NCBI RefSeq assembly: GCF_014192215.1
Contig: NZ_JACHXP010000006.1
Coordinates: 1 to 64,000 of the forward strand
Direction: 5' to 3'
Source: Halomonas cerina
GTDB lineage: Bacteria; Pseudomonadota; Gammaproteobacteria; Pseudomonadales; Halomonadaceae
DNA length: 64,000 bases
Numbering within the stretch: position 1 is the stretch's first letter; each line of letters begins with the position of its first letter. A model generated the notes under the pieces. That model saw only the letters and a program-made list of their open reading frames with translations, searched no databases and had not been told where the DNA came from. Of the stretch, positions 43,834-63,687 are shown one piece after another. The position numbers and the translations under genes are program-made.

Positions 43834-43847
43834 GGAATAATAGTTCC
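43834..43847. promoter_or_regulatory. GGAA-N6-TTCC site, distal, ABC importer promoter
   Basis: GGAATAATAGTTCC, 59 bases upstream of the proximal copy and just before the shared element ATACCAAAGTATAGAA (43852-43867). The form matches rhizobial IolR (RpiR-family) sites. Confidence 0.6.
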
Positions 43848-43875
43848 ATTTATACCAAAGTATAGAATAATTTTT

Positions 43876-43906
43876 TTGATAAATCATAAAATGGAATCTA
43901 TATTCC
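43876..43906 (+). promoter_or_regulatory. Promoter of the ABC importer with GGAA-N6-TTCC over the -10
   Basis: TTGATA (43876-43881), 17 bases, TATATT (43899-43904). The palindrome GGAATCTATATTCC at 43893-43906 covers the -10 box, so a bound regulator would block polymerase. The binding-protein gene starts ~108 bases downstream. The whole region aligns without gaps with the NCS1 promoter at 51003-51061. Confidence 0.7.
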
Positions 43907-44013
43907 AATGACGGTTCAGGCAGGAGGCTCGTCGCCACATCCTGCCAGCCGACGCCTCCCACCCCGCCTGGGAGGCCGAACAAACACAACAAGCCCGCTA
44001 AGGAGTCTGCCCA

Positions 44014-44928
44014 ATGAAACGCGTACTGTTCGGTGCCGCCATCTTTGCCACCTGCACGTCCTCTGCCATGGCCGCCACCCTTGGCGTATCCGTGGCCTGG
44101 TTCGACGACAACTTCCTGACCTCCATGCGCAACGCCATGCAGGCCGAGGCGGAGGCGCAGGGCCACAATATCCAGTTTTTGGACGCCCAGGGTGATATCG
44201 GCCGCCAGCTGAGCCAGACGCAATCCCTGGCCGCCCAGGACGTCGACGCCATCATCATCAACCCCGTCGACACCGCCGCTACCGGCAAGATGACCGAGGT
44301 TGCTGTGCAGAACGGTATCCCGCTGGTCTATGTGAACCGCCAGCCGGAAGGCAAGGACCTCGAAAACGACAACGTGGTGTTCGTCGGCTCCGACCAGAAG
44401 CTCTCGGGCACCCTGCAGATGGAGGCGCTGGCTGAACGCATGGGTGGCGAAGGCAACGTCGCCATCATGCTCGGCGAGCTCTCTTCAGGCGCCACTCATC
44501 AGCGCACCGAAGGGGTGAAGGAAGTCATCGCGGAATACCCCGGTATCGAGATCATCGCGGAGCAGCCGGCCGACTATCTGCGTACCGAGGCCATCAACCT
44601 GATGAACAACTGGATCGTCGGGGGGCAGCAGATCGATGCCATCGCCGCCAACAACGACGAGATGGCCCTGGGTGCTTTGATCGCCATGCAGCAGTCGGGC
44701 ATTTCTCCGGACGAGATACTGGTCGGTGGTATCGACGCCACTCGCGATGCCCTCGAGGCCATGCAGCGTGGTGAGCTCGCCGTCACCGTCTTTCAGGATG
44801 CCCAAGGGCAGGGCGGCGGTGCCGTCAAGTCCGCTCTCGGCCTGATCAATGGTGAAGAGGTGGAGAAGCGCACCATGGTGCCCTTCAAGCTGGTGACCCC
44901 CGAGAATCTCGACAACTTCCTCAACTGA
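44014..44928 (+). CDS. Periplasmic sugar/inositol-binding protein of an ABC importer
   Basis: 304 residues with a signal peptide ([20 protein letters not shown]). It has the periplasmic-binding-protein type 1 (RbsB-like) fold: [20 protein letters not shown] at the mature start, [15 protein letters not shown] (~80), [19 protein letters not shown] (~210) and [14 protein letters not shown]. Together with the ATPase and permease that follow it forms a CUT2-type importer. The GGAA-N6-TTCC sites tie it to the inositol regulon, so myo-inositol or a related cyclitol is the best guess for ligand. Confidence 0.88.
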
Positions 44929-44989
44929 TGCCGCCTGGCCTGCCCGATGTGTCGGGCAGGTCGCGTCGCGAGCCATTGGAGCGTGCGTT

Positions 44990-46543
44990 ATGGCAACGAT
45001 GACCGCAGAAAAGCCCGCCACCGAGGCTGCCACTCAGTACTTGCTGGAAGTGGTCGATGCCCGCAAGACCTTCCCGGGCGTGGTGGCATTGGACAATGTT
45101 CAGCTCAAGATACGGCCGGGTACCGTGCATGCCCTGATGGGCGAGAACGGTGCCGGCAAGTCCACCCTGATGAAGATCATCGCCGGTATCTACATTCCCG
45201 ATCAGGGCGAGGTCCGCCTGAATGGCAAGCCGCTGCAGTTGCACGGCCCGTTGGATGCCCTGGAAGCCGGCATCGCCATGATCCATCAGGAACTCAACCT
45301 GATGCCCTACATGAGCATCGCCGAGAACATCTGGATCCGCCGTGAGCCGCTCAATGCCTTCGGCATGGTAAACCACGACAAGATGAACCAGATGACCGAG
45401 GCGTTGTTCGAGCGTCTGGGCATCGACATGGACCCGGAAATGGAGGTTCGCCATCTTACCGTGGCCGGCCGCCAGATGATCGAGATCGCCAAGGCCGTGT
45501 CCTACGAGTCCGATGTTCTGATCATGGACGAGCCCACCTCATCACTGGCCGACCGTGAGGTGGAACACCTTTTCCGGATCATTAACGACCTACGGACCCA
45601 GGGTAAGGGAATCATCTACATCACCCACAAGATGGACGAAGTGTTCGAGATCGCCGACGACATCTCCGTGTTCCGTGACGGCCAGTTCATTCACTCCACT
45701 GCGGCCAGCAACATGACATCCGACGAGATCATCAAGCTGATGGTCGGCCGCGAGGTTACCCAAATGTTCCCCAAGGAAGAGGTGCCGATCGGGGAGGTGG
45801 TGCTATCGGTGGACAACCTCTGCCTGGAAAGTGTCTTCGAGGACATCAGCTTCGAGGTGCGTGCCGGTGAGATCCTCGGTCTCGCCGGCCTGGTGGGGTC
45901 GGGACGTACCAATGTCGCCGAGACCCTGTTCGGTGTGACGCCGCCCACGTCGGGTCGGATCGTCATCGATGGAAAGGAAGAAATCATCAGCTCACCGCAT
46001 CAGGCGATGCTGCGTGGTCTTGCACTGCTGACCGAAGATCGCAAGGAAACCGGCCTGTTTCTCGGCCTCTCGGTCGTCGAGAACATGGAAATGGCCGTCC
46101 TGCGGGATGGTTATACACGGGCCACCTTCGTCGAGCAGGATCGACTTGATCAAGAGTGCGATTCGATGAAGGAGCGGTTAAGGGTCAAGACACCCTCCAT
46201 GGAAGAGCGCATCGGCAATCTTTCCGGCGGCAACCAACAGAAGGTGCTGATCGGCCGTTGGTTGATGACCAAGCCGCGCATCTTGATCCTCGACGAACCC
46301 ACCCGCGGGATCGATGTGGGCGCCAAGGCCGAGATCCATAAGCTGATCACTGAACTCGTCAAACAAGGCGTAGCCGTGATCATGATTTCCTCCGAATTGC
46401 CGGAAGTCCTCGGTATGAGCGATCGCATCATGGTCATGCACGAAGGGAGGGTCACCGGCTTCCTCGACCGCAGCGAAGCTAACCAGGTCAACATCATGCA
46501 ACTCGCATCGTCACCGGTGGAACCGCCGGTCGTCGAAGGCTGA
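44990..46543 (+). CDS. Sugar ABC importer ATPase, double-domain CUT2 type
   Basis: 517 residues, two fused ATPase halves as in RbsA/MglA. Half 1: Walker [10 protein letters not shown] (51-59), Q-loop [10 protein letters not shown], Walker [16 protein letters not shown]; its signature is altered (LTVAGRQM). Half 2: degenerate Walker [10 protein letters not shown], intact signature [10 protein letters not shown] and Walker [19 protein letters not shown]. This asymmetry is normal for the family. It lies 61 bases after the binding protein and 39 bases before the permease, and energises uptake at the cytoplasmic face. Confidence 0.92.
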
Positions 46544-46582
46544 TCTTTCCCCCAGCCACGGGCACCAATGAGGTAGAAGACA

Positions 46583-47611
46583 ATGAGCAAGACAATGGAA
46601 ACTACCGACCACCTGGAGGTGGTCCGGAAACGCCGCAAGAAACTGCCCACCGAGGTGAGCATCTTCCTCGTCCTAGTGGGCATCGCGATCCTCTTCGAGA
46701 TTCTCGGCTGGATCGTGCGCGGCGATTCCTTCCTGATGAACCCCCAGCGCCTGCTGATCATGATCCTGCAGATGTCGATCATTGGCATCATCGCCATCGG
46801 CGTCACGCAGATCATCATCACCGGCGGCATCGATCTCTCGTCGGGCTCGGTACTGGCCTTGACGGCCATGGTCACGGCCAGCCTGGCCCAGCAGTCCGAC
46901 TACGTGCGGGCCGTCTACCCGGCACTGACCGATATGCCGTGGATCATTCCACTTATCGCCGGTGTTCTGGTCGGCGCCCTGTGCGGGCTGATCAACGGTG
47001 CTCTTATTTCCTTCGCGATGATTCCGCCGTTCATCGCCACTCTGGGCATGATGGTCAGTGCCCGCGGTGTGGCTCGCGCCTACACCGACGGCCAACCCGT
47101 CAGCATGCTGACCGATCAGTTTACCTGGATCGGCTCCGGCGCCAACCCGGTGATCATCTTCCTGGCCGTGGCCGTGATCTTCCATATCGCCCTGAAGTAC
47201 ACCCGCTACGGCAAGTACACCTATGCGATCGGCGCCAACCCCCAGGCGGCTCGTGTGTCGGGCATCAACGTACGCCGTCACCTGGTACTGGTCTACACCA
47301 TCGGTGGCCTGTTGGCCGGCCTGGCCGGTGTGGTTGCCTCGGCCCGTGCCGGCACCGGTCAGGCGGGCATGGGGTTGATGTATGAGCTCGATGCCATCGC
47401 GGCAGCCGTCATCGGCGGCACCAGCCTGGCCGGTGGGGTTGGCCGTATTGCCGGCACCGTGATCGGGGCGCTGATCCTTGGCGTGATGCTCAGCGGTTTC
47501 ACCTTCCTCGGTGTCGACGCCTACTACCAGGACATCGTCAAGGGCGCGATCATCGTCGCTGCCGTGGTGGTCGATCAATACCGCCAGCGCAAGCGCAACA
47601 AGGCGGCCTGA
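46583..47611 (+). CDS. Sugar ABC importer permease, CUT2 (RbsC) type
   Basis: 342 residues with ~9-10 membrane helices after a basic N-terminal tail. RbsC-family features: TQIIITGGIDLSSGSVLALT (~74-93), MIPPFIATLGMMVSARGVAR and GANPQAARVSGINVRRHLVL, the cytoplasmic loop that contacts the ATPase. ELDAIAAAVIGGTSLAGGVG near the end is also standard. It is the third gene of the importer operon and ends 9 bases before a strong terminator, so the porin that follows needs its own promoter or read-through. Confidence 0.92.
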   Translation: MSKTMETTDHLEVVRKRRKKLPTEVSIFLVLVGIAILFEILGWIVRGDSFLMNPQRLLIMILQMSIIGIIAIGVTQIIITGGIDLSSGSVLALTAMVTASLAQQSDYVRAVYPALTDMPWIIPLIAGVLVGALCGLINGALISFAMIPPFIATLGMMVSARGVARAYTDGQPVSMLTDQFTWIGSGANPVIIFLAVAVIFHIALKYTRYGKYTYAIGANPQAARVSGINVRRHLVLVYTIGGLLAGLAGVVASARAGTGQAGMGLMYELDAIAAAVIGGTSLAGGVGRIAGTVIGALILGVMLSGFTFLGVDAYYQDIVKGAIIVAAVVVDQYRQRKRNKAA

Positions 47612-47619
47612 CCCCTCCT

Positions 47620-47656
47620 CCACCTGGCTCCTCCAGAGCCAGGTGGACCTTTTTTT
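47620..47656 (+). terminator. Strong intrinsic terminator after the importer operon
   Basis: 11-bp stem CCACCTGGCTC / GAGCCAGGTGG with a 5-base loop (47620-47646), followed by ACC and a T7 tract. Confidence 0.92.
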
Positions 47657-47802
47657 CCATCATGCTTACCGACCGGAAGAGGCATCGATCGCCCTTTTCC
47701 ACGTACTGTCACGCATCAAGAAAGGAGATTGTCCAGAGAAAAATTCACTGCCACGAACCATATAACAAGTCCAAACAACCTACTTAATCATAGGGATATC
47801 AA

Positions 47803-48930
47803 GTGAAAAATCCGTTACATATTACCGCAGGCCTTTTGGCCCTTTTTTCAGCCTCTTCCGCATATGCTGAGATTGTCTACGAGGGTGAGCCGGGGAAGTT
47901 GATGTTCGGTGGTGATGTCGAACTGGACATCAACTCCTACAATACCCAGTCGGGCCCGATCTTTACCGAAGACAACATCGAGACGAACGACGAATACAAC
48001 CAGAGCGGGCGTATCCTTCTGGATGTGAGTGGTGAACGCACTCACAGGGGCAACTTCGCACGCTTCAAGGTACAGCCGCTCATGCAGACGGATGGCACCT
48101 TCGGACTGGATGATTCCTGGTTCGCCTTCGGCAACGACACTGGCCTTGAGGCCAAGGTTGGCCGCTTCGAGGCCTTCGACCTCTTCCCACTAGGGCAGGA
48201 TGTGTTCGTGGAGTACAACGGCGACACCTCCGACAGCCTGTACAGTGACGGTCAGGGATATATCTATCAGGCCAAGGAGGGCCGTGGCCGGTCGGGTGAC
48301 GCCGGTCAGGTCCTGGTCAGCAAGGCAAGTGGAGATCTTTATGCCGAAGTCTCCACGCTGTTCGGCGATCGCACCGATCTCTTCCAGGGCGGTACCTATC
48401 ACGGCTTTACCATCCAGGAAGACAGCAAGAACGCCTTCATTATTCGTCCGGTACTGGCATGGACGCCGGGGTCCTGGACATTGGCGGCGGGTGCCGAGAC
48501 CAACCTGGTCGACGATGCCATCGTCGATGAAAGGGGACAGGATATCAGTGAGCGAGACGGTTACGGGACGCGCCTTTCCTATTCCGAGGGCGCCTGGTCA
48601 CTCAATGCCAACCTTGCCTACATGGACGCTCATGATGAAGAGAACCTGACGCTGGGCCTGAACATGCTCTGGCACAACTTCGGCCTGGGCTACATCCATG
48701 CCCGCAACGAGATCCAGAATGTCAAGGTCGGCAGTAGCGTCGAGTTCGCCTCCGGTGACTATGACGTCGATACCCTCTACACCTCCTACCGCTTTCCGGA
48801 GGTGCTGGGCATCGAGGGCTTCGATATCTATCTCGGTGCCTACTACAGCCAGATTGACCACGAGGAAATCAGCAACCTGGATGAGGCCGACCGCTATGGG
48901 GGACGCCTGAGATTCAAGTATTTATTCTGA
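47803..48930 (+). CDS. Outer-membrane carbohydrate porin-like protein
   Basis: 375 residues starting at GTG, with a signal peptide (VKNPLHITAGLLALFSASSA, cleavage after AYA near residue 22). The mature protein is acidic and rich in alternating beta-strand patterns, ending in the porin-type C-terminal Phe (GGRLRFKYLF). It resembles RafY/ScrY-like porins in style. It lies 147 bases after the importer terminator and is the likely outer-membrane entry for the same substrate. Family assignment is by architecture; exact type is uncertain. Confidence 0.75.
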   Translation: MKNPLHITAGLLALFSASSAYAEIVYEGEPGKLMFGGDVELDINSYNTQSGPIFTEDNIETNDEYNQSGRILLDVSGERTHRGNFARFKVQPLMQTDGTFGLDDSWFAFGNDTGLEAKVGRFEAFDLFPLGQDVFVEYNGDTSDSLYSDGQGYIYQAKEGRGRSGDAGQVLVSKASGDLYAEVSTLFGDRTDLFQGGTYHGFTIQEDSKNAFIIRPVLAWTPGSWTLAAGAETNLVDDAIVDERGQDISERDGYGTRLSYSEGAWSLNANLAYMDAHDEENLTLGLNMLWHNFGLGYIHARNEIQNVKVGSSVEFASGDYDVDTLYTSYRFPEVLGIEGFDIYLGAYYSQIDHEEISNLDEADRYGGRLRFKYLF

Positions 48931-49202
48931 TCCCGAGTGATTGCGATAGCGCCTTTCTTGCCCCGCCTCGGCGGGGCCTGTTGCGTTCAAGGGGGCTCTT
49001 AACGAGGGGCCAGGTCCTTCCTATTGGCCGAGCGCGCGGTAGCAACCATGCTGGCGTCGCTGGAGACGAGCGATGCCGATGCCCCCTGGGCTCGCCGGAT
49101 CAGGTAGTGGATGGGCCAGGCGTTACACATGATCTGCCGGTAGGCCCCAATGGAAACGGGCTGGCCAATGGCCAGCCCGTCTCAAGCCAGATGTCGGCTC
49201 TC
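48931..49202. other. Convergent spacer with two hairpins
   Basis: Holds GCCCCGCC-TC-GGCGGGGC at 48960-48977 (after the porin, no T-run) and an 11-bp stem ACGGGCTGGCC-AAT-GGCCAGCCCGT at 49156-49180. The latter is placed to end the minus-strand permease transcript and is followed there by TTTCC. No gene seen. Confidence 0.55.
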
Positions 49203-50921
49203 TTAAGCTGTCTGCGGCTCACGGCGGTTCTTCATCCACAGTGTGGCGGCGATGAAGTAGATCCCCGTCAGCGGCACGACCAGCCACTGGTAGGTCTCGA
49301 GATAGTCGATGGCGCCGCCGCTCTCCCCGCTCCAGGCCCAGAAGCTCGCCAGCAGGATCACCACCAGGCAACCCAAGGCCAGGAAGTACCAGGGATCGCG
49401 GCGGTTGACCGGGGAGTGGGGCGGGGCGGTGACACCGGCCAGCTCGGGCGGTTCCACCGGACCGTAGGCCGCTGCGTGGTAGTCGATACCGGACTCGGTT
49501 TCGACCCCCATGACGCGACACAGCAGCGGATAGACGAGGAAGGCCGTCAGCCACACCGGGATGAACACCGTGAACAGGTGGACCTGGGGCAGGCCGATCA
49601 TGAGGATACCCACCCCCACCCCGGTGATCCAGGTCAGGATGGCGGGGCGGTTGTCCTCGAGGCCCTTGTGCTCACGCCACAGCGGACGGATGCCGAGCCG
49701 AGGCAGCACGAAGTGTTCGGCGGCGATGATGGCGCCGATGGGCGCCATGGCCATGATCAGGTAGGACATGACGTCCAGGAGCGAGGTAAAGGCGAAGGGG
49801 AAGCAGGCGATCACGGTGGTGGCGGCGCCCACCGTCAGGCTGACATTGAAGGGCTTGTGGCGATGGAACACCGATTGGAAGGCGAGACCCGCCCGATAGA
49901 GGCTCGGGATCGAGGTGGTCCAGCCGGCGACCACCACGGCCACCAGGCCCATGGTGCCGAGGATGCGATAGGCGATGGCGCCCGGGTCGAGACCGATCAG
50001 CTGTTCCTTGAGCAGGAGTGCCGCGGTCGCCCCCATGATGCCGGCGCAGACCCAGGCCATGAAGTGGCCGATGTACATGCCGGCCGCGGAGAAGTAGCCA
50101 TAGGAAGACTTGCGCGCGAAACGCAGGATGCTCATGTCGCTCATGCCCAGGTGCATCGGCAGATTGACGCCCCAGGCCCAGGCGGCGATGACCCAGATGC
50201 TGATCCCCGCTTCGCCGTCCGGCGTCTGCCCGGTCCAGACCAACCCGTCAAGCACCGCGCCAAGGCCGCTCAGTCCCTGCTGGTCGCCCAGGTGGGTGAC
50301 GATCGGCACGGATAGTATGCCGCTGACCAGGAACATGGTCGCCATCCAGGGCGCGCAGACCGTGGAAAAATTGGCGATCAGCTTGAAGCCCTTCAGGGTC
50401 AGGAAGACGGTGAAGGCCCCCACGGCAAGCGCCAGCAGCACGAAACTGACGCTGGTCGGGTAGAGACCGGTCTGGGGCGGAATATCGGTCATGGCCCGAA
50501 ATGCCGAGGCCGACACCGTGATCATGGCGCCGGCCACCACGGCGTAGAAGATGCCGTTGACGATGTTGTAGATGTAGGAGACCTTCTTGCCCGCGAGACG
50601 GGCCAGATACCAGTAGACGGTCATGCGCGAGCGTGTCGCCACCGGGCTGCAGACCCAGGCCCAGGACAACACCGCCATGAGATTACCGAGAATCAGGCCC
50701 CAGATCAGGTCGCTGGTCGAGACGCCCAGCGATACCAGGGCGGCACCGATGACGAACTCGGTGCCCGCCACGTGCTCCCCGGAATAGGCTCCAAGAAAGT
50801 ATTTGCCGCTCAACTGCTTGCTGGGCGGAATGCGTTGGTACTCGAGCTCATCGCTCTGGGCAACGTCATCCCCGGCCGGGGACGTCGTCGCGCTGGTCGC
50901 TTGTGTGCTCATGACGCTCAT
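49203..50921 (-). CDS. NCS1-like permease under GGAA-N6-TTCC control
   Basis: 572 residues, ~12 membrane helices, longer than usual through a ~40-residue polar N-terminus. It fits the purine/cytosine permease branch of NCS1: YFLGAYSGEHVAGTEFVIGA in helix 1, WVCSPVATRSRMTVYWYLA, and WAWGVNLPMHLGMSDMSILRF around helix 6. Nucleobases or vitamins are usual substrates, yet its promoter is a near copy of the ABC importer promoter and carries the inositol-type palindrome, so a cyclitol or related polyol is possible. Start ATG 50921 has a weak AAGAGC site; ATG 50912 is an alternative. Confidence 0.82.
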   Translation of the reverse strand: MSVMSTQATSATTSPAGDDVAQSDELEYQRIPPSKQLSGKYFLGAYSGEHVAGTEFVIGAALVSLGVSTSDLIWGLILGNLMAVLSWAWVCSPVATRSRMTVYWYLARLAGKKVSYIYNIVNGIFYAVVAGAMITVSASAFRAMTDIPPQTGLYPTSVSFVLLALAVGAFTVFLTLKGFKLIANFSTVCAPWMATMFLVSGILSVPIVTHLGDQQGLSGLGAVLDGLVWTGQTPDGEAGISIWVIAAWAWGVNLPMHLGMSDMSILRFARKSSYGYFSAAGMYIGHFMAWVCAGIMGATAALLLKEQLIGLDPGAIAYRILGTMGLVAVVVAGWTTSIPSLYRAGLAFQSVFHRHKPFNVSLTVGAATTVIACFPFAFTSLLDVMSYLIMAMAPIGAIIAAEHFVLPRLGIRPLWREHKGLEDNRPAILTWITGVGVGILMIGLPQVHLFTVFIPVWLTAFLVYPLLCRVMGVETESGIDYHAAAYGPVEPPELAGVTAPPHSPVNRRDPWYFLALGCLVVILLASFWAWSGESGGAIDYLETYQWLVVPLTGIYFIAATLWMKNRREPQTA

Positions 50922-51002
50922 CCGTTGCTCTTGAAAGGGTTTTGGGACCGGCTGTCGGGGCAGCGCCCCTCCGGTCTCGGCTGGTGTGAATCTCTGATCA
51001 TG

Positions 51003-51061
51003 TATTGGAATATATATTCCATTAATGTTTTATTCAAACCAATCGTTCTATACTTTGGTAT
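51003..51061 (-). promoter_or_regulatory. Promoter of the NCS1-like permease, twin of the ABC importer promoter
   Basis: Minus strand: ATACCAAAGTATAGAA (51061-51046), TTGAAT as -35, 17 bases, TATATT as -10, with GGAATATATATTCC (51007-51020) covering the -10. Positions, spacing and both elements equal those at 43852-43906 without any gap; only the filler bases differ. Confidence 0.75.
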
Positions 51062-51218
51062 GAAACGTAAGTGTGTTCCTTCGCCGTCTTCCTCAGCGAA
51101 CCACTCGGGGAGCGGGCTTGGCGCGTGGCGTTGTGCCTAGGGCAGGAGAGGAGGGGAGATCAGGGGGAAGCGTTGTCTCGAGCCAGGCGCCTGAACCGCT
51201 CGTTCGACGGTGCAACGC

Positions 51219-51398
51219 TTAGTTGCGTCGCAGGTAAGCCTCTATGTTGTCGGGGGTCACCAGTTCGAAGGGAATCCATACGGCGTTGTCGACCTCCTCG
51301 CCGTCGATCAGGCGGTGCAGGGTGTCGATGGCGCCCTCGCCCTGGGCGGGGCCGGCCATCAGGGCGGCGGTGAGGGGGATCAGGCTGAGCTTGTTCAT
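51219..51398 (-). pseudogene. Internally deleted sugar-binding protein remnant
   Basis: 59 codons: a signal-peptide start MNKLSLIPLTAALMAG runs straight into GEGAIDTLHRLIDGEEVDNA and ends FELVTPDNIEAYLRRN. The second part matches the C-terminus of the binding protein at 44014-44928 ([20 protein letters not shown] ... [14 protein letters not shown]). About 240 central residues of an RbsB-type protein are missing while the frame is kept. It lies 44 bases after the isomerase gene in the LacI-controlled operon, so an importer that once belonged there has been lost. Confidence 0.8.
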
Positions 51399-53657: not shown

Positions 53658-53733
53658 AACATGATGCAAAGAAGGTCGCGAGTCGCGCGATCTGTGGCGC
53701 TTCTCTGCGTCGAGAAGGCCCTTCCGGCGTTTA

Positions 53734-53747
53734 TGCAACCGGTTGCA
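53734..53747. promoter_or_regulatory. LacI-type operator O2
   Basis: TGCAACCGGTTGCA, a perfect 14-base palindrome with the central CG pair typical of LacI/GalR operators, 90 bases from O1 and from O3. Confidence 0.8.
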
Positions 53748-53823
53748 ATCGGGTTGGTAAAAAAGCGCATGAGGCCATGCGCTGCGTCATTCACCGGGTG
53801 CCATCGAGGGATAAACACCGCAT

Positions 53824-53837
53824 TGCACCCGGTTGCA
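53824..53837. promoter_or_regulatory. LacI-type operator O3
   Basis: TGCACCCGGTTGCA, 43 bases before the LacI gene start, so it probably mediates autoregulation. The equal 90-base spacing O1-O2-O3 would suit looping. Confidence 0.75.
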
Positions 53838-53879
53838 AATAAGATAGAATGGGGGCAGAAAACCTGTCAAGGAGCCACC

Positions 53880-54902
53880 ATGCGCAAAAGGTCTAAGACG
53901 TCCAACGGCCAGCGCGTCACCGCCAGTGATGTGGCCGAGCGAGCGGGCGTTTCCAAGTGGACCGTCTCCCGTGCCTTCACCGAGGGCGCCTCGGTGTCCC
54001 CCCAGGCGCGGGAGCGGGTGCTCGCGGCCGCCGCGGAACTCGGCTATCGCCCCAACCTGCTGGCCCGTGGCCTGACCAAGCACCGCACCCAAATCGTCGG
54101 CCTGGTGGTCGACGAGATGGACAATCCCAACCTTCTCTCGCTGATCAACACCACCACCTCGCAGCTGCAGCGCCAGGGGTACCTGGCCATGCTGCTCAAC
54201 ATCAGCTCCGAGCACGATCATGGCGCGGCCATTTCGCTGGCCGACCAGTTCCAGGTGGATGGCCTGATCTTCCTGGGTACCGTCTTGACCGACGAACTGG
54301 TGCACCTGGCGCAGCAGATCCGCCACATCCCGCTCGTGGTGCTCTATCGCAACAGCGACAATCCCAATATCCAGGTCGTCTCCACCGACGGTTATCGGGC
54401 GGGCCGAGAGATCGCGGGCCTGCTCCTCGAGCAGGAGTATCGCCGCATCGGGTACATGACCGGCCCGGTCAGCGGATCCACCCGACTCAGTCGACTGGAT
54501 GGCTTTCGGGATGGCCTCGCCGAGCAGGGCCTGGCCGTCGACGAGGTACTGGAGGCGGGGCATTACCGACGCGAGTGCGGGTTCCGTGCCCTGGAGCACT
54601 ATCTGGCCACCACGGCGCCGGCCGAGCGGCTCGAGGCGCTGTTCTGCGAGAACGACATCCTGGCCATCGGTGCTCTGGATGCCCTCAAGGCGCGAGGCGA
54701 GTCGGGCAGCATGGGGATCGTCGGCTTCGACGACATCAAGCAGGCGGCGTCACCCGCCTACGCCCTGACGACCTACCGCCAGCCGCTGGAGTCGCTGGTC
54801 AATGAGGCGATTCGGCGCATCCGCTTCGACGAGGCGCAGCCCCGACGTCACCTGCTACCGGGCGAATTGATCCAACGCGACTCCCATCGCCGGACAAACT
54901 AG
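53880..54902 (+). CDS. LacI-family transcriptional regulator
   Basis: 340 residues. The LacI helix-turn-helix is at ~12-36 (VTASDVAERAGVSKWTVSRA) with hinge helix LGYRPNLLARGL; the periplasmic-binding-protein-like effector domain spans ~68-335 (VGLVVDEMDNPNLLSLINTT, DGLIFLGTVL, MGIVGFDDIKQA). The hinge and the CG-centred palindromes upstream fit each other. It is divergent from the Gfo/Idh-isomerase operon and surely controls it. The ATG at 53880 follows AAGGAGCC; the frame open upstream crosses operators and is rejected. Confidence 0.93.
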   Translation: MRKRSKTSNGQRVTASDVAERAGVSKWTVSRAFTEGASVSPQARERVLAAAAELGYRPNLLARGLTKHRTQIVGLVVDEMDNPNLLSLINTTTSQLQRQGYLAMLLNISSEHDHGAAISLADQFQVDGLIFLGTVLTDELVHLAQQIRHIPLVVLYRNSDNPNIQVVSTDGYRAGREIAGLLLEQEYRRIGYMTGPVSGSTRLSRLDGFRDGLAEQGLAVDEVLEAGHYRRECGFRALEHYLATTAPAERLEALFCENDILAIGALDALKARGESGSMGIVGFDDIKQAASPAYALTTYRQPLESLVNEAIRRIRFDEAQPRRHLLPGELIQRDSHRRTN

Positions 54903-54947: not shown

Positions 54948-55874
54948 CTACAGGGTAAACGCCGGGCCTGGGGCCTCCGGCTCAGGTCCTTCCAGCCTGG
55001 ATACGACGGATCTCAGGGTGGTGCTGAGTTCGCGCGAGAGGAAATCGGCGAACTTGGCATTGCGCAGCGTGCGATCGAGGGTCGCGGCCGGCAGGAAGCG
55101 CGTCATCTCGTTGTGGAAGGCTTCACCGGCGATGATCCCGGGCAACCGCTCGATCATGTCGTGGGTCTTCCCAACGTAGTCCTGCACGTTGTAGTCATGG
55201 ATCTTGTGTTTCACCAGCTCCAGGTCGGGAGTTGCTCCCTGTTGCTTGAGCCACTGCAGATCCCAGATGTCCCGGTGGCGAACATAGCGTTGTGTGTTCA
55301 CCAGAGAGATGAGTTTGTCGGCCAGGATCTCGTCGAGGCTCTCGGTGATCACGAGAAGGTCGCTGTACCCATCCGGCAAGAAGGGGTAATGCACTTGCAC
55401 GCTGTGCGCCTCGCGCGAATACGCCGGGATATTGGCGATCTCCAGCTTGATTCGCTGCTTGGGCAGGTCGGGCCGAGCGGGGGATGTCACGACGGCTACC
55501 TGCCACTTATCGACGCGGATCTCCGCATAGGTCGGGTCGCGACGAAGTTCACTGGGTGGCTTGACGGTGACATCGAGCCGATATCGACGACTCACATAGT
55601 CTTCGATGCATTCCTTGAGGTGCGCGACATCCTGGCGCTTGAAATCCCGGTCGCCGACGAAGTCCAGATCCTCGCTGAATCGCGGTGCACCATGACACAG
55701 CCGGAGCGATGTCCCTCCCTGGAACGTCAACGTGTCGAGCAGGCCTTCTCTGTCCAGGGCGAACAGGATGTCGAAGTGGAGCAGCTCCTTCTCGATGACC
55801 GGCCGCATGGCCTGTCGTCCGGGATCGGCCATGGCTTGGGCAACCAGCCGCTCGAAGTCTGCGGGTTCAATCAC
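54948..55874 (-). CDS. abiEii: AbiEii/AbiGii-type nucleotidyltransferase toxin
   Basis: 308 residues from a GTG start. Toxin of a type IV toxin-antitoxin/abortive-infection pair. The nucleotidyltransferase motif is plain: FQGGTSLRLCHGAPRFSEDLDF (~48-69) with the G-S and D-x-D residues, then a conserved lysine in DEILADKLISL (~183). AbiEii-type enzymes inactivate tRNA by adding nucleotides. It overlaps the antitoxin gene by 8 bases. Confidence 0.92.
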   Translation of the reverse strand: MIEPADFERLVAQAMADPGRQAMRPVIEKELLHFDILFALDREGLLDTLTFQGGTSLRLCHGAPRFSEDLDFVGDRDFKRQDVAHLKECIEDYVSRRYRLDVTVKPPSELRRDPTYAEIRVDKWQVAVVTSPARPDLPKQRIKLEIANIPAYSREAHSVQVHYPFLPDGYSDLLVITESLDEILADKLISLVNTQRYVRHRDIWDLQWLKQQGATPDLELVKHKIHDYNVQDYVGKTHDMIERLPGIIAGEAFHNEMTRFLPAATLDRTLRNAKFADFLSRELSTTLRSVVSRLEGPEPEAPGPAFTL

Positions 55875-56406
55875 GCTTCAGCACCTGGGTATCGACGAGA
55901 TGGGTATTCCGCCCCACACGCTTGAGATCGGCCCAGGCGGCCTGGGGGGTCGCCAGACGTAGGGGCCGGCCGACATCGCGCATGCGCTCCATCAGCTCGC
56001 TGACCGGGCGGCTGGTGTGGGTGAACTCGATCGTGCCGTAGGGTGTGCGGTAGGTTCCCTTGCGCCCGGTGGTCATGATCGTCAGGCGATCCACGGGAAT
56101 CTGGGAGATGGCACCGTACTCGGACAAGGCCGACTCGAGGCTGACATAGCTGAATTCTCCGCGACGCATGGCCCTGGCGATCCGTTCCAGTCGATACGGA
56201 TCGCTCGTTGTGGCGAGGGGGTAGAGGTAGATTCCCCGGGCGACGCCTTGCAACAGGCCATGTCGCCGGAGACGGTTGATCCCCTCCTGAAGCGTCTTGC
56301 GGCTGTCCTCAGGAAAGACCTTGGCCATATCGCGGAGGGTGAAAATATACCGTCCTTCGCGGCGGTCCCACTCATCCAGCCGCCGTCGAGCCGTCATTTG
56401 ATCCAT
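55867..56406 (-). CDS. abiEi: AbiEi-type antitoxin and transcriptional repressor
   Basis: 179 residues. N-terminal winged helix-turn-helix (~15-60; YIFTLRDMAKVFPEDSRKTL, RRHGLLQGVARGIYLYPLA) and a C-terminal antitoxin domain with SYVSLESALSEYGAISQIP. It neutralises the AbiEii enzyme and represses the operon. A perfect 16-base palindrome lies 15 bases upstream of its ATG. Confidence 0.9.
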   Translation of the reverse strand: MDQMTARRRLDEWDRREGRYIFTLRDMAKVFPEDSRKTLQEGINRLRRHGLLQGVARGIYLYPLATTSDPYRLERIARAMRRGEFSYVSLESALSEYGAISQIPVDRLTIMTTGRKGTYRTPYGTIEFTHTSRPVSELMERMRDVGRPLRLATPQAAWADLKRVGRNTHLVDTQVLKRD

Positions 56407-56420
56407 AGGTGCACACCAAA

Positions 56421-56558: not shown

Positions 56559-56562
56559 GGCG

Positions 56563-57039: not shown

Positions 57040-57062
57040 GCCGGAGCCTTAGGGGCTCCGGC
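57040..57062 (-). terminator. Intrinsic terminator of the iol operon
   Basis: GCCGGAGCC - TTAGG - GGCTCCGGC, then a T7 tract on the minus strand (complement of 57032-57038), 33 bases after the mmsA stop. Confidence 0.92.
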
Positions 57063-57094
57063 GTTCACTGTCGCGTGATCTGCGTTGTGCGAGA

Positions 57095-58597
<1,503 letters not shown>

Positions 58598-58637
58598 GTC
58601 AGATTACCTCTTGGTTGTCGGGGCTCTCGATGGTCTG

Positions 58638-59537
58638 TTAGGGGGTGACGCTCAGGCCGGCCTCGGCACAGAAGCGCTTGAGGTTGTCGCAGCCCAGCCG
58701 GGCATAGGTCAGCGGATGCGCCACGGCGGGGTCCTGTTCGGCCTCGACGACTATCCAGCCTGCATAACCGCTCTCATTGAGCCCCTTGAAGAGCGTGACG
58801 TAGTCGATGAAGCCATCGCCCGGCACGGTGAACATGCCGTTGAGCACACCGTCCAGGAAGCTCAGGTCACGGTTGCGGGCGTCCTGCAGCACTTCCTGGC
58901 GGATGTCCTTGCAATGCACATGCACGATGCGTTTGGCGTAGCGCTTCTGGGCGGCGACGGGGTCGCCACCCGCACCCACTAGGTGGCCGGAATCGAGCAG
59001 CAGGCCGACGGAAGGCCGAGTCTCGGCCATCAATCGCGCGATCTCTTCCTCGGTCTCGATCACCGTGCCCAGGTGGTGGTGGTAGGCGATCTGCACGCCC
59101 TGCTCGAGGCAGTAGTCGGCCACCTGGTTGAGGCGCGGGATCAAGGTCTGCCACTCTTCCTCGCTCATGGTCGGCGAGTGGGAGAGCGGCACATCGCGCT
59201 GACCGTGCACGCAATGGGTGACCTCGCAGAACACCATCGCCTTGGCACCCAGCGACTTGAGCAGGTGCAGGTGCGGCTTGATCGCCTCGATTTCCTCCTC
59301 GGCGCTGCGGGTCAAAAGCTCGCTGCTGTACCAGCCGGAGACCAGCGACAGGTCGTGCTTGTCGAGGATCGGACCCAGCACCTCGGGATCGCGGGGGAAC
59401 TTGTGGCCCAGCTCGAAGCCGGAAAAGCCGGCCTCTCGGCCCTCGGAGAGACAGGTTTCCAGCGGGGTATCACCGCCCAGCGACGGCATGTCGTCGTTGG
59501 TCCAGGTGAGGGGGTTGATGCCCAGTCTAACGCTCAT
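58638..59537 (-). CDS. iolE: Myo-inosose-2 dehydratase
   Basis: 299 residues. Dehydrates scyllo-inosose (2-keto-myo-inositol) to 3D-trihydroxycyclohexane-1,2-dione. TIM-barrel fold: LGINPLTWTNDDMPSLGGDT at the start is the IolE hallmark, with FSGFELGHKFPRDPEVL, the metal-site Glu/His in AYHHHLGTVIETEEEI, LLLDSGHLVGAGGDP, and WIVVEAEQDP. It lies 54 bases after iolD. Its product is the IolD substrate. Confidence 0.95.
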   Translation of the reverse strand: MSVRLGINPLTWTNDDMPSLGGDTPLETCLSEGREAGFSGFELGHKFPRDPEVLGPILDKHDLSLVSGWYSSELLTRSAEEEIEAIKPHLHLLKSLGAKAMVFCEVTHCVHGQRDVPLSHSPTMSEEEWQTLIPRLNQVADYCLEQGVQIAYHHHLGTVIETEEEIARLMAETRPSVGLLLDSGHLVGAGGDPVAAQKRYAKRIVHVHCKDIRQEVLQDARNRDLSFLDGVLNGMFTVPGDGFIDYVTLFKGLNESGYAGWIVVEAEQDPAVAHPLTYARLGCDNLKRFCAEAGLSVTP

Positions 59538-59591
59538 GACGTACTCCTGAGTGCAAGTCTTGTGGTCGTGGATTCGTGATGGTGAATGGCG

Positions 59592-61442
59592 TTACATGTT
59601 CTGCCACTGGCGTGCCTTGTAGGCCTCGTAGCGGCTTCGGGCCTCATTGACCTCGGCGCGCGCAGAGACCTCGGGCACCGCCACGTCCCACCAGGCGCCA
59701 CCGTCCTGGGTATCGGCCAGCGGGTCGGTGTCGATGGCGATCACGTAGCTCACATCGGAGGCCTTGGCGCGCTCCAGGGCCGCTTCCAGCTCGCGAATAT
59801 TGCCCACCTTCTCGGCCTTGGCGCCGAGCGCGGCGGCATGAGCGGCGAAATCGGTCTTGGGGGCGCCGCCTTCCACGGTCAGGCAGTCGTCGAGCAGGTT
59901 GTTGAAGCCCGGGCCACCGCAGAACTGCTGCAGGCGGTGGATACAGCCATAGCCGCGGTTGTCGAGCACCACGGCGACGATCTTGTGGCCCAGCATCACC
60001 GAGGTGGCGATCTCGGAGTTGAGCATCAGGTAGGAGCCGTCGCCGACCATCACGAAGACTTCGGAGTCGGGCAGCGCCATCTTGGCGCCCAGGCCGCCGG
60101 CCAGCTCGTAGCCCATGCAGGAGTAGCCGTACTCCATGTGGTAGCCACGATGGAAACGGGTGCGCCACAGCTTCTGCAACTCGCCGGGCAGGCCGCCGGC
60201 GGCGCACACCACGATGTCGCGTTCGCCGGCGGCGCGGTTGACGGCGCCCACGACCTCGGCATCGCAGGGCAGGTCGGTACCGCGATCGGCGGTGACCCGA
60301 TCGACGGTCTGGTTCCAGTCGGCACGCAGCTCGGCCACCTGCTCGACCCAGCCGCCTGAGGGCTGCCAGTCGCCGAGGCCCGCGGCCAGTTCCGGTAGCG
60401 TCAGCCGGGCGTCGCCGACCAGCGCCTGGCCCTTGTGCTTGACCGCGTCGAAGGAGGCCACATTCACGCATAGCAGCTTGGCCTCGGGGTTGATCATCGC
60501 CCGAGAGCCCGAGGCGAAATCGCCCAGCCGGGTGCCCACGGCGATGATCAGGTCGGCCTCGGCGGCCAGGGCGTTGGCGGAGGCCGCGCCGGTGACCCCC
60601 ATGGTGCCCAGGTTCTGGGCGTGATCCCACGGCAGCCCCCCCTTGCCGGCCTGGGTCTCGCCCACCGGCAGGTGGTAGGTGGAGACGAAATCGTCGAGCT
60701 CGGCCAGGGCGCCGGAGTAATGCACCCCGCCTCCGGCGATCACCAGCGGCTGCTTCGCCTGGCGGATCAGGGCGATGGCGTCTTCCAGTTCTCGCCGGTC
60801 GGCGGCCTGGCGACGCAGGCGGTGGACCTTCTCGGCGAAGAAGTGCTCGGGATAGTCGAAGGCGAAGGTCTGCACGTCCTGGGGCAATGCCAGGGTGACC
60901 GGACCGCACTCCACCGGGTCGGTGAGCACGCGCACCGCCTGCGGCAGCGAGGTCAGCAACTGCTCGGGTCGGGTGATGCGATCGAAGAAGCGGCTGACCG
61001 GCTTGAAGCAGTCGTTGGAGGTCAGGGTATGGTCGTGGTAGTTCTCGACCTGCTGCAGCACCGGGTCCGGCAGGCGGGTGGCGAAGGTATCCCCCGGCAG
61101 CAACAGCACCGGCAGGCGGTTGACATGGGCCACGGCAGCGGCGGTGACCATGTTGGTGGAGCCGGGACCGGCCGAGGCGGTACAGGCCATGACCTGCTGA
61201 CGGTTGAGCGTCTTGGTATAGGCGATGGCGGCATGCGCCATGCCCTGCTCGTTGTGCGCGCGGTAGGTGGGCAGCGCGTCGCGTGCCTGGTAGAGCGCCT
61301 CGCCGAGCCCGGCGACATTGCCGTGGCCGAAGATCGCCCAGACCCCGGGAAACAGCGGCTTGATCTCGCCGTCGATGTCGACCTTCTGGGCCATCATGTA
61401 GCGGACGACGGCCTGGGCCATGGTGAGTCGGATGGTGTTCAT
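59592..61442 (-). CDS. iolD: 3D-(3,5/4)-trihydroxycyclohexane-1,2-dione acylhydrolase
   Basis: 616 residues, thiamin-diphosphate enzyme of the acetolactate-synthase fold that hydrolytically opens the cyclohexane-dione ring to 5-deoxy-glucuronate. The N-terminal pyrimidine-binding domain has the catalytic Glu in YRAHNEQGMAHAAIAYT; the central domain follows; the C-terminal pyrophosphate domain has the motif VGDGSYLMLNSEIATSVMLG. Length agrees with IolD. Its ATG overlaps the iolC stop by 4 bases (ATGA). Confidence 0.95.
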   Translation of the reverse strand: MNTIRLTMAQAVVRYMMAQKVDIDGEIKPLFPGVWAIFGHGNVAGLGEALYQARDALPTYRAHNEQGMAHAAIAYTKTLNRQQVMACTASAGPGSTNMVTAAAVAHVNRLPVLLLPGDTFATRLPDPVLQQVENYHDHTLTSNDCFKPVSRFFDRITRPEQLLTSLPQAVRVLTDPVECGPVTLALPQDVQTFAFDYPEHFFAEKVHRLRRQAADRRELEDAIALIRQAKQPLVIAGGGVHYSGALAELDDFVSTYHLPVGETQAGKGGLPWDHAQNLGTMGVTGAASANALAAEADLIIAVGTRLGDFASGSRAMINPEAKLLCVNVASFDAVKHKGQALVGDARLTLPELAAGLGDWQPSGGWVEQVAELRADWNQTVDRVTADRGTDLPCDAEVVGAVNRAAGERDIVVCAAGGLPGELQKLWRTRFHRGYHMEYGYSCMGYELAGGLGAKMALPDSEVFVMVGDGSYLMLNSEIATSVMLGHKIVAVVLDNRGYGCIHRLQQFCGGPGFNNLLDDCLTVEGGAPKTDFAAHAAALGAKAEKVGNIRELEAALERAKASDVSYVIAIDTDPLADTQDGGAWWDVAVPEVSARAEVNEARSRYEAYKARQWQNM

Positions 61443-63379
61443 GACACAGATTCCTCGGTGGTGGGCTGGGCTGCGCGCAGCCGCTGCCATTCCTCGATCA
61501 GTTCGGCGTAGTTAGCCGCGACCTTGTCGACCAGCTGGGCATCATCGATGTCGCCGGCGAGCCATTCGCGGCTGGGGCCGGCGAACAGGGTGCGCCCCAC
61601 GGTGAAGCCCTTGCACTGGCCATTGCGGGCGGCGGCGCCGAAGCCGCGTTTCATGTCATCCATGGGGGCGTCCAGGCCCAGCAGTACCACGCCGCGGCAA
61701 TGCGGATCCTGCTTCTCGATCGCGCGGCTCACCTCGTCCCAGGCGGCATCCGGCATCGTCGGCAGCTTCCACCAGTCGGGGCGGATGCCCAGGTTGTAGA
61801 GCCGTTGCACGGCGCGCGCCAGGGTGTGGTCATCGACGTCCTGGTGATTGGGCGGAATCACCTCGATCAGTAGCTCCAGGCCGTTGGCGCAGGCTGCCTG
61901 GTAGAGCTGGCGCAGGTGAGCCTCCTGGTCGGCGCGCAGCGCGGCCGGGTCGTCCGGGTGATAGAACACCAGGCACTTGATGATGTGCTCGCGCGGCCAC
62001 TGACGCAGGTGGCTGCCCAGGTCGTCGCCGTGCTGGAAGCGCAGTGGCCGGGAGCTCGGTAGCTCCACCGGGCGACCGATCCACCAGCCCTTGCCGGTGG
62101 CGTCGTTCAGCGCATCCTGGCCGAAGACGTCGTCGACCAGGATCGCCGGCTTGGTGAGCCCGGTGCGGCGCGCACCTTCCTCGGCGGCCTGGACCAGCAG
62201 CTGCTTGAGGGCCGGGATGCGCGCCGGGTTGGCCTTGACGTCGCGGGCCATGTCGGTGAGCTGGCGGCGATGATCGAAGGCCAGGCCGCAGACCCGGGGC
62301 CATTCCCTGGGGGTGCGGGTGGTCACCCGGTGCAGGTGGTTGAGGCGCACATCTTGGTCGGGACGCGGCAAGGTAGCGCGACGGCCCAGGTAGTCGAACA
62401 GCTCCTCCTCGGTGGGCATGGCCGGGGCGCAGCCGTGGCGCGAGACCACCAGGGCGCCACAGGCATTGGCGTAGCTCGCACTGGTCTCCCAGTCTTCGTC
62501 ACGTAACCATCCCCTGAGAAGACCGCTCATGAAGGCGTCGCCGGCACCCAGCACGTTGAGCACTTCGACCTTGACGCCTTCCACCAGGATGCCGTCCTCG
62601 AGGCGCGCGGGGATCTCGCCCTCGAAGACCACGCAGCCCAAGGCGCCCAGCTTGCACACCAGGGTGGCGTCGCTGACCTCACGCACTGCACGTAGCGATG
62701 CCAGGGTGTCGGTGCTGCCGCCGGCAATATGGAACTCTTCTTCGGTGCCGACGACCAGGTCGAAGTCGGCAAGCCAGGCCTTCAGGTCGTCGGTCACCTT
62801 GTCGTCGGCGATGAAGCGGGTCTCGCCGTCGCCGGGGGTGGTCAGGCCCCACAGCACCGGGCGGTAGTCGATGTCCAGCACGCGCTTGACGCCATGCTCG
62901 ACGGCGGCGTCGAGCGCCTTGCGACAGGCGCGGGCGGTGGTGTCGGTGGACAGGTGGGTGCCGGTGATGGCCAGCGCCTTGGCGCGGGCGATGAAGGTCG
63001 GGTCAATGCTCTCGGCGTCGATGGCCATGTCGGCGCAGTCGCGGCGATAGAACAGCAGCGGGAAGCTGTCGCGATCCTTTAGCGCCAGCAGCACCAGGCC
63101 GGTATGACGCTCGGGATCGGTCTGCAGGGCGCTGGTATCGACGCCGGCGCGCTCGAGTTCCTCGCGCACGAAGTTGCCCATCTGCTCGTTGCCGACCCGT
63201 GACAGCATGGCCGATTTCAGGCCTAGGCGGGCGGTGCCGTAGGCCATGTTGCCGGAGCTGCCACCCAGGTACTTGGCGAAGCTCGCGACGTCTTCCAGGC
63301 GACTGCCGATCTGCTCCGCGTAGAGGTCGACGGCGACGCGGCCGAGACAGATCAAATCCAGGGGCTTGGCATTGTTCAT
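61439..63379 (-). CDS. iolC: 5-dehydro-2-deoxygluconokinase fused to a DUF2090 aldolase-like domain
   Basis: 646 residues. Residues 1-~325 are a PfkB-type kinase (LGGSSGNMAYGTARLGLKSA at ~39-58; GAGDAF at 278-283 with catalytic Asp281) that phosphorylates 5-dehydro-2-deoxygluconate. Residues ~345-640 form a DUF2090 domain (FDHRRQLTDMA, VLLGLDAPMDDMKRGFGAA), widely present as an IolC fusion in proteobacteria and thought to supply the IolJ-type aldolase step. No separate iolJ is in the window, which fits. The gene has its own spacer with GGAA-N6-TTCC sites. Confidence 0.94.
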   Translation of the reverse strand: MNNAKPLDLICLGRVAVDLYAEQIGSRLEDVASFAKYLGGSSGNMAYGTARLGLKSAMLSRVGNEQMGNFVREELERAGVDTSALQTDPERHTGLVLLALKDRDSFPLLFYRRDCADMAIDAESIDPTFIARAKALAITGTHLSTDTTARACRKALDAAVEHGVKRVLDIDYRPVLWGLTTPGDGETRFIADDKVTDDLKAWLADFDLVVGTEEEFHIAGGSTDTLASLRAVREVSDATLVCKLGALGCVVFEGEIPARLEDGILVEGVKVEVLNVLGAGDAFMSGLLRGWLRDEDWETSASYANACGALVVSRHGCAPAMPTEEELFDYLGRRATLPRPDQDVRLNHLHRVTTRTPREWPRVCGLAFDHRRQLTDMARDVKANPARIPALKQLLVQAAEEGARRTGLTKPAILVDDVFGQDALNDATGKGWWIGRPVELPSSRPLRFQHGDDLGSHLRQWPREHIIKCLVFYHPDDPAALRADQEAHLRQLYQAACANGLELLIEVIPPNHQDVDDHTLARAVQRLYNLGIRPDWWKLPTMPDAAWDEVSRAIEKQDPHCRGVVLLGLDAPMDDMKRGFGAAARNGQCKGFTVGRTLFAGPSREWLAGDIDDAQLVDKVAANYAELIEEWQRLRAAQPTTEESVS

Positions 63380-63498
63380 AGAGTCAAATCCTGCGTGAGG
63401 CCGAAACGCGAGCGCCTTGGTTCCTGCGGGTCGGTCGATGGGCTCTGTCGGCCATGGGTCCGTGGTACGTCTGCTGTCATTCCAATACTAGAAGATAT

Positions 63499-63512
63499 GG
63501 AATATAAATTCC
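63499..63512. promoter_or_regulatory. GGAA-N6-TTCC site, iolC proximal
   Basis: GGAATATAAATTCC on the plus strand, ~120 bases before iolC. On the minus strand TATATT lies inside it at the same place as in the importer and NCS1 promoters. Confidence 0.7.
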
Positions 63513-63527
63513 AATAATACGATAGTT

Positions 63528-63541
63528 GGAATAACGGTTCC
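63528..63541. promoter_or_regulatory. GGAA-N6-TTCC site, iolC middle
   Basis: GGAATAACGGTTCC, centre 29 bases from the proximal site (close to three helical turns), so two dimers could sit on the same face. Confidence 0.65.
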
Positions 63542-63673
63542 TGGTTCATCAGCATCCTTGGCGAAGGCATGACAACTCCCACCACGTCCTAGCTTTGGGG
63601 CTCCTGCGCGGCAGGAGGCGTGCCGAGAGCCACTACGGCATCCCCAGGGCACGACGCCATTCCTAGAAGCAGC

Positions 63674-63687
63674 GGAATGTACGTTCC
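63674..63687. promoter_or_regulatory. GGAA-N6-TTCC site, iolC distal
   Basis: GGAATGTACGTTCC, 146 bases from the middle site, between it and the iolG terminator. Confidence 0.55.

What the first reader, a model, noticed from the sequence alone, without database searches (positions are those of the whole stretch)
43834..63687. Six GGAA-N6-TTCC palindromes tie the ABC importer, an NCS1-like permease and iolC into one regulon
Seen: GGAATAATAGTTCC (43834), GGAATCTATATTCC (43893), GGAATATATATTCC (51007), GGAATATAAATTCC (63499), GGAATAACGGTTCC (63528), GGAATGTACGTTCC (63674). All are in intergenic promoter regions, and three overlap a TATATT -10 box at the same offset. Known: IolR (RpiR family) of Sinorhizobium was reported to act at GGAA-N6-TTCC sites before iol genes. 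Inferred: an RpiR-type IolR encoded outside the window represses all three transcripts.
Basis: partly seen in the sequence, partly recalled or inferred. Interest (0 to 1): 0.75.

Follow-up and report, generated by a model that had tools for sequence, protein, structure and literature searches.

The report
Inositol repressor sites with fixed spacing
A salt-loving bacterium appears to switch on its inositol uptake and breakdown genes through one repressor that sits on short mirrored DNA sites, and around the transporter promoters these sites keep a strict spacing around a second, unexplained 16-letter DNA element.

Summary
Chance does not explain them: 9 matches in the window against 0.73 expected. 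The predicted RpiR-type IolR gene exists, 3.0 kb past the window's end, and two more operators lie before iolB. In 151 family genomes IolR and IolC were found in exactly the same 48. So this is an IolR regulon of the kind published for Caulobacter and rhizobia.

At importer, permease and iolB promoters, and at iolR promoters of relatives, an operator stands 4 nt from a 16-bp element, TTCTATACTTTGGTAT; a second operator lies 25-26 nt away on the other side. In 51 composites from Halomonadaceae-type records the second operator, not part of the search pattern, sits at 25 or 26 nt in 47. iolC promoters behind iolG use a 29-bp pair instead (8 of 8). The 16-bp element occurs almost only in genomes with IolR (37 of 48 against 2 of 103); its binder is unknown. 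The permease belongs to this regulon and is only distantly NCS1-like. Nothing was tested at the bench.

The parts
43834..43847 (+). operator GGAATAATAGTTCC, upstream site of the importer composite
   Evidence: TGGAA-N6-TTCCA form
43852..43867 (+). 16-bp element ATACCAAAGTATAGAA (reverse strand TTCTATACTTTGGTAT), 4 nt from the upstream operator and 25 nt from the downstream one
   Evidence: 3 places in the genome at <=2 mismatches, reversed control 1
43876..43881 (+). -35-like TTGATA of the importer promoter
   Evidence: read from the sequence; 17 bp before TATATT
43893..43906 (+). operator GGAATCTATATTCC covering the -10-like TATATT (43899-43904) of the importer promoter
44014..44928 (+). sugar ABC importer, periplasmic binding protein (RbsB-like)
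   Evidence: Pfam Peripla_BP_4 2e-57
44990..46543 (+). sugar ABC importer, ATPase
   Evidence: Pfam ABC_tran; NCBIfam MglA/RbsA-like but below cut-off
46583..47611 (+). sugar ABC importer, permease
   Evidence: Pfam BPD_transp_2
47803..48930 (+). outer-membrane porin of RafY type, probably same operon
   Evidence: Pfam Porin_8 4e-94; operon membership inferred
49203..50921 (-). divergent permease, distantly NCS1-like, behind the 51007 composite
   Evidence: no Pfam/NCBIfam/PDB hit of its own that is credible; of 25 aligned members 9 hit CytX, 7 cytosine permease
51007..51020 (-). operator GGAATATATATTCC covering the -10-like TATATT (51009-51014) of the permease promoter
51046..51061 (-). 16-bp element ATACCAAAGTATAGAA, 25 nt from the operator
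51066..51079 (-). degenerate upstream operator GGAACACACTTACG (one good half) in the expected register, 4 nt from the element
   Evidence: read from the sequence
61439..63379 (-). iolC (5-dehydro-2-deoxygluconokinase fused to aldolase); iolD 59592-61490, iolE 58638-59537 and iolA 57095-58597 follow
   Evidence: NCBIfam NF047869, TIGR04377, TIGR04379, TIGR01722, all above cut-off
63499..63512 (-). operator GGAATTTATATTCC of the iolC 29-bp pair, covers TATATT
63528..63541 (-). operator GGAACCGTTATTCC, second site of the iolC 29-bp pair
63674..63687 (-). third operator GGAACGTACATTCC farther upstream of iolC (lacks one flanking T/A)

Best explanation
These are operators of an IolR-type (RpiR/SIS) repressor encoded 3 kb past the window's end. 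Without inositol, IolR dimers hold TGGAAT-N4-ATTCCA sites that cover the -10 (importer, permease, iolC) or the -35 region (iolR in relatives, iolB) of sigma-70-type promoters. When inositol is broken down, a pathway sugar phosphate (in S. meliloti proposed to be DKGP) binds the SIS domain and releases the repressor. At importer, permease, iolB and iolR promoters the sites form a composite: operator, 4 nt, TTCTATACTTTGGTAT, 25-26 nt, operator. In most relatives it lies between two divergent promoters. At iolC promoters behind iolG two operators lie 29 bp apart. Shown by computation: the sites, the gene, co-occurrence and geometry. Inferred: binding, repression, effector, and that IolR itself contacts the 16-bp element next to one operator.
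For: Sites far above chance. RpiR gene with HTH_6 and SIS domains inside the iol cluster. IolR and IolC in the same 48 of 151 genomes. Composite in 38 of 48 IolR genomes and 1 of 103 others; 16-bp element in 37 of 48 and 2 of 103. Site at <=1 mismatch in the upstream stretch of iolR in 29 of 31 loci (reversed control 3; one of the 29, L147, only by a match inside the gene), of permease orthologues in 7 of 7 (control 1), of 40% permease paralogues in 1 of 19 (control 2). Second operator, not in the search pattern, at 25 or 26 nt in 47 of 51 composites. iolC 29-bp pair in 8 of 8 loci where iolC follows iolG and 0 of 21 where it follows other genes. Published precedent: PMC2597717, PMC8877191.
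Against: No binding or expression data. This genome's own iolR promoter has no perfect site, only a weak version of the composite. 10 of 48 IolR genomes lack the composite at <=1 mismatch. 21 of 30 iolC loci have no site at <=1 mismatch upstream, and the reversed control reaches 6 of 30 there; explains this by gene order. Exact double sites were not enriched at any spacing in a 398-genome phylum sample. Named IolR homologue stretches without a perfect site: Azospirillum (<=1 mismatch 7, reversed control 11) and Salmonella (6 against 0). A LacI-type regulator at 53661-54902 is nearer to the permease than IolR is.
Confidence: 0.85

Rival explanations
1. The 16-bp element TTCTATACTTTGGTAT is bound by a second, dedicated protein (for instance an activator at about -47 to -50 of both divergent promoters), and IolR binds only the two palindromes.
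For: The element has its own inverted repeat (ATAC-N4-GTAT) unlike GGAAT-N4-ATTCC and an asymmetric centre, mostly TTTG; iolC promoters with a 29-bp pair do without it.
Against: At <=2 mismatches it occurs only 3 times in the genome, always beside IolR operators; in 151 genomes it tracks IolR (37 of 48 against 2 of 103). No partner gene was looked for.
Confidence: 0.35
2. The local LacI-family regulator (53661-54902) controls importer and permease, and the GGAA palindromes are its sites.
For: It is the regulator gene closest to the permease among the ORFs scanned and sits beside a Gfo/Idh dehydrogenase and a TIM-barrel gene.
Against: A separate CCGG-centred palindrome of LacI type (type recalled) lies before the LacI gene itself (53730-53761). 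The GGAA motif tracks iolR promoters in relatives, and among the 51 composites a LacI hit is listed for one stretch (L104).
Confidence: 0.06
3. The palindromes are chance matches in AT-rich promoter DNA.
For: The bare motif is only twice the reversed control across the genome; the sites sit in AT-rich spots.
Against: First-order resampling of five upstream regions gives 0.03 sites on average, maximum 2, against 8 seen; conservation and spacing in relatives.
Confidence: 0.01

Closest known systems
IolR regulon of Caulobacter crescentus and rhizobia (RpiR-like IolR; PMC2597717; Kohler et al. 2011 known here only through PMC8877191)
   Same: RpiR-type regulator, GGAA-N6-TTCC palindromes before iolC and a sugar ABC importer; the two Caulobacter iolC motifs, at 104 and 45 bp upstream, are also 59 bp apart.
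   Different: Here the 59/60-bp pair with the 16-bp element serves importer, iolR and iolB promoters and a 29-bp pair serves iolC; no such element is mentioned in the passages read; iolG here has no perfect site of its own; a permease is added to the regulon.
IolR of Salmonella enterica (autoregulated repressor; PMC10783015, start of abstract and passages)
   Same: An annotated IolR on a Salmonella plasmid is 44.7% identical; it represses iol genes.
   Different: No perfect GGAA-N6-TTCC in the part of that stretch scanned, though 6 sites at <=1 mismatch against 0 for the control; MFS importers and the activator ReiD are annotated there, no ABC importer in the stretch.
NCS1 nucleobase/hydantoin/thiamine transporters (CytX, CodB; substrates recalled)
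   Same: Some of its relatives match CytX or cytosine permease models; 12 partly overlapping hydrophobic segments on a crude scale.
   Different: The window protein matches no such model; 0 of 25 aligned members match Pfam's NCS1 family; 3 relatives on Alteromonadales plasmids lie in rhamnose or pectin/kdu-type sugar clusters.

Membership tests
RpiR-type IolR regulon | regulator with RpiR helix-turn-helix and SIS domain | tested here: met
   HTH_6 2e-11 and SIS 3e-20, both above cut-off; PDB RpiR-type hits
RpiR-type IolR regulon | regulator gene linked to iol catabolic genes | tested here: met
   iolR between iolG/TIM-barrel genes and iolB; same 48 of 151 genomes as iolC
RpiR-type IolR regulon | GGAA-N6-TTCC before iolC and the inositol ABC importer | tested here: met
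RpiR-type IolR regulon | GGAA-N6-TTCC before idhA/iolG | tested here: inconclusive
   no perfect site in L005:6672-7083, between the iolG-side genes and iolR, only AGAATTTTTATTCT
RpiR-type IolR regulon | repression relieved by an inositol pathway intermediate | not testable with these tools
   needs expression or binding assays
NCS1 transporters (the permease) | match to NCS1 family models | tested here: not met
   window protein: none in Pfam or NCBIfam; of 25 aligned members 0 match Pfam NCS1, 1 ncs1, 9 CytX, 7 cytosine permease
NCS1 transporters (the permease) | LeuT/Mhp1-type fold (recalled) | tested here: inconclusive
   two-sequence model useless, mean pLDDT 34; no profile hit in the PDB
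Inositol ABC importer (IbpA-IatA-IatP) | sugar-binding protein, ATPase and permease of ribose/galactose type near iol genes | tested here: met
   substrate not testable here

The most novel reading that the evidence does not exclude
IolR of Halomonadaceae reads two different DNA words: GGAAT-N4-ATTCC and the adjacent TTCTATACTTTGGTAT. It assembles on a fixed three-site composite (17 bp and 42-43 bp between centres) that holds importer and iolR promoters in one complex, whereas the 29-bp pair at iolC forms a simpler one. With this it controls a permease of an unassigned, distantly NCS1-like clade that carries inositol or a related polyol.
Probability: 0.3. Interest if true: 0.65.

Novelty: new variant of a known kind. 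Interest (0 to 1): 0.45.

Why it matters
It extends the alphaproteobacterial type of IolR control to a family of salt-loving gammaproteobacteria and gives a regulon whose operator spacing depends on promoter type. The strict 25-26 nt and 29 bp spacings make the assembly of RpiR-type repressors testable with short DNA fragments. The permease gets a physiological assignment that no sequence family gives it. The 16-bp element is a clear, regulon-specific unknown.

Tried and rejected
Exact double palindromes with 30-60 nt between them in 398 genomes of the phylum: 21 genomes with a match, this one included; spacings scattered and sequences mostly unlike the iol sites; no support for deep conservation of the pair. 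The composite outside the family: 25 non-family RpiR homologues show pair spacings of 30, 58 and 64, one each, none at 59-60. The scan of genome contigs gave 55 stretches: 49 from Halomonadaceae-type records and 6 from Firmicutes/Bacteroidales MAGs, taken as chance. One of the 49 (MFB021) is unclassified Gammaproteobacteria in the taxonomy. I looked up four genera (all Halomonadaceae) and filed the other genus names under the family from recall.

TATACT inside the 16-bp element as a -10 box: no conserved -35 lies at the right distance. A global regulator for the element: made unlikely by its scarcity. Permease structure: model of mean pLDDT 34, so no fold search was made. One search stopped half-way on a missing file and its rest was repeated; its two printed probabilities are used.

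Limits of the samples. Searches use loci chosen by a pattern that holds the element and one operator, so only the other operator, the TTC before the element, the CAAA/-35 and the TAGACT/-10 are independent evidence there; the reversed control for the second operator gave 6 of 51 at any offset. Loci were capped at 30 a search: one search saw 31 of the 49 iolR matches in the family, 30 of the 49 iolC matches, all 26 permease matches, and 25 of the non-family RpiR matches. A Halomonas plasmid stretch (L262) has no perfect palindrome near iolR but does carry the composite with one mismatch in each of its three parts.

Full report
All six GGAA-N6-TTCC sites are exact at the stated places, and the window has 9 matches where shuffles give 0.73; the three others lie in ORFs. 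In the genome (4.17 Mb, 53 contigs) the bare motif is only twice as frequent as its reversed control, 70 against 35, so it does not define a regulon by itself. The fuller form does: 6 of the 10 exact TGGAA-N6-TTCCA sites and all 4 GGAAT-N4-ATTCC sites fall in one 24-kb stretch. Of the eight intergenic sites there, two lie just past the window, at C6:68045 and 68104, in front of iolB.

The regulator exists. Of four RpiR-type HTH genes in the genome one lies at C6:67014-67961, between iolG/TIM-barrel genes and iolB. It has an RpiR HTH and a SIS domain. Its homologues were found in 48 of 151 family genomes, and IolC in exactly the same 48. An annotated IolR of Salmonella is 44.7% identical. GGAA-N6-TTCC is the published motif of the IolR regulon of Caulobacter and four other alphaproteobacteria (PMC2597717: passages and section 19 read). 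In Ensifer the regulator is described as an RpiR-like repressor released by the pathway intermediate DKGP, after Kohler et al. (PMC8877191: passages; the original paper is not held).

How it probably works. In importer and permease promoters TTGATA / TTGAAT and TATATT are 17 bp apart, and TATATT lies inside the palindrome; iolC has TATATT at the same offset but no clear -35. A repressor on these sites would block RNA polymerase. Release by a sugar phosphate at the SIS domain is inferred from the published system.

A second element. ATACCAAAGTATAGAA occurs exactly in the importer and permease promoters and with one mismatch in the iolB promoter, and nowhere else in the genome at up to two mismatches (reversed control 1). 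The arrangement is fixed: operator (14), 4 nt, element (16), 25 nt, operator (14). The importer promoter reads one way and the iolB promoter is its exact mirror image, both with 59 bp between operator starts. The permease promoter has the same register with a half-degenerate upstream operator. The genome's own iolR promoter carries a weak version, TTCTATACTAACGTTT-4-AGAATTTTTATTCT.

Relatives explain the mirror image. The composite (<=1 mismatch) is found in 39 of 151 family genomes, with 3 hits for the reversed control in all; 38 of the 39 have IolR. A scan of one genome per species for 84,980 species found 55 stretches, 49 from Halomonadaceae-type records and 6 from unrelated MAGs. The 49 hold 51 composites; 41 have iolR on the rightward side and 42 have a leftward importer-type gene within 4.2 kb (6 loci too short, 3 without). 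So the composite is most often the divergent promoter between an ABC importer and iolR. The second operator, not in the search pattern, lies 26 nt from the element in 39 and 25 nt in 8 of the 51; 4 lack it (reversed control 6 of 51 at any offset). By the sequences the four are L113, L115b, L118 and L124b; three of them have a TIM-barrel gene instead of the importer on that side, which suggests that this operator serves the importer promoter. The leftward -35 (CAAA on the strand shown, each letter in at least 46 of 51), a leftward TTTG-to-TATA spacing (44 of 51) and a rightward TAGACT-like -10 at 7-8 nt from the operator (40 of 51) are conserved too.

Two operator layouts. In loci fetched by protein, not by motif, a site at <=1 mismatch lies in the upstream stretch of iolR in 29 of 31 (reversed control 3; one of the 29 only by a match inside the gene), of permease orthologues of at least 65% identity in 7 of 7 (1), of 40% permease paralogues in 1 of 19 (2) and of non-family RpiR homologues in 13 of 25 (2). 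For iolC it is 9 of 30 (control 6). This resolves by gene order: where iolC follows iolG, as here, a pair 29 bp apart (at most 3 mismatches over both sites) is present in 8 of 8; in 21 loci where iolC follows other genes (an ABC ATPase is the nearest reference hit in 14) no pair is present; and one iolC divergent from iolR has a 60-bp pair. Spacings of 29, 59 and 60 bp are 2.8, 5.6 and 5.7 helical turns, a similar phase. The Caulobacter iolC motifs are 59 bp apart as well, as computed from the positions in the paper; that is one case and may be coincidence.

What binds the 16-bp element is open. At <=1 mismatch it occurs in 39 of 151 genomes, 37 with IolR and 2 without, with 5 hits for the reversed control. 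In five of the seven permease promoters (L062-L066) the operator at the -10 is degenerate while the upstream operator is kept (perfect in four, one mismatch in one) together with the element (0-1 changes; one has a 1-nt insertion); L061 is the reverse, with the -10 operator kept and the upstream part eroded, and the window's promoter has its upstream operator half lost. This loosely ties the element to its neighbouring operator, and I favour IolR itself as the binder; a dedicated second regulator is not excluded.

The permease. It has no credible match of its own in Pfam, NCBIfam or the PDB. Of 25 aligned members 9 match CytX, 7 cytosine permease and 1 the ncs1 model, and none Pfam's NCS1 family, so NCS1-like is a distant resemblance. 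A two-sequence structure model was useless. By coordinates, the window permease and its six 65-68% orthologues lie within about 11 kb of iolR or iolC in 7 of 7 genomes. Of 10 plasmid records with a relative I looked at three, 43-48% identical, from Alteromonadales: they sit in rhamnose or pectin/kdu-type sugar clusters under the name nucleoside transporter. A sugar or polyol permease, here for inositol, is the best guess.

Novelty. Searches for the element's sequence, for Halomonadaceae with inositol and regulon, for Halomonas with IolR and for NCS1 with inositol listed no paper whose title or start of abstract describes it; only listings were seen for these, except for one survey that names Halomonas among likely inositol users (PMC9430895, passages). 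The library holds openly licensed papers only. The regulon is a new member of the IolR kind, with an operator architecture that I did not find described.

Noticed in passing
window 51219-51398 (-): A 59-residue ORF looks like the remnant of a sugar-binding protein: a signal-peptide-like start run straight into the C-terminal end of a binding protein (42-55% identical over 37-39 residues to stretches in other loci, importer binding proteins among them). An importer may have been lost here.
   Followed up: partly
window 54948-56406 (-): AbiEii toxin and AbiEi-like antitoxin pair between the LacI gene and iolA (the AbiEi match is just below cut-off).
   Followed up: no
window 53730-53761: Palindromic stretch TTTATGCAACCGGTTGCAA... 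before the LacI-family gene, a possible site of that regulator.
   Followed up: no
G000 C6:1471 and C12:1270: The same GGAATTCCTCTTCC 14-mer near the start of two contigs; perhaps a repeated element at contig ends.
   Followed up: no
L259, L260, L261: Relatives of the permease annotated as nucleoside transporter lie inside rhamnose or kdu-type sugar gene clusters of Alteromonadales plasmids, so that annotation is doubtful.
   Followed up: partly
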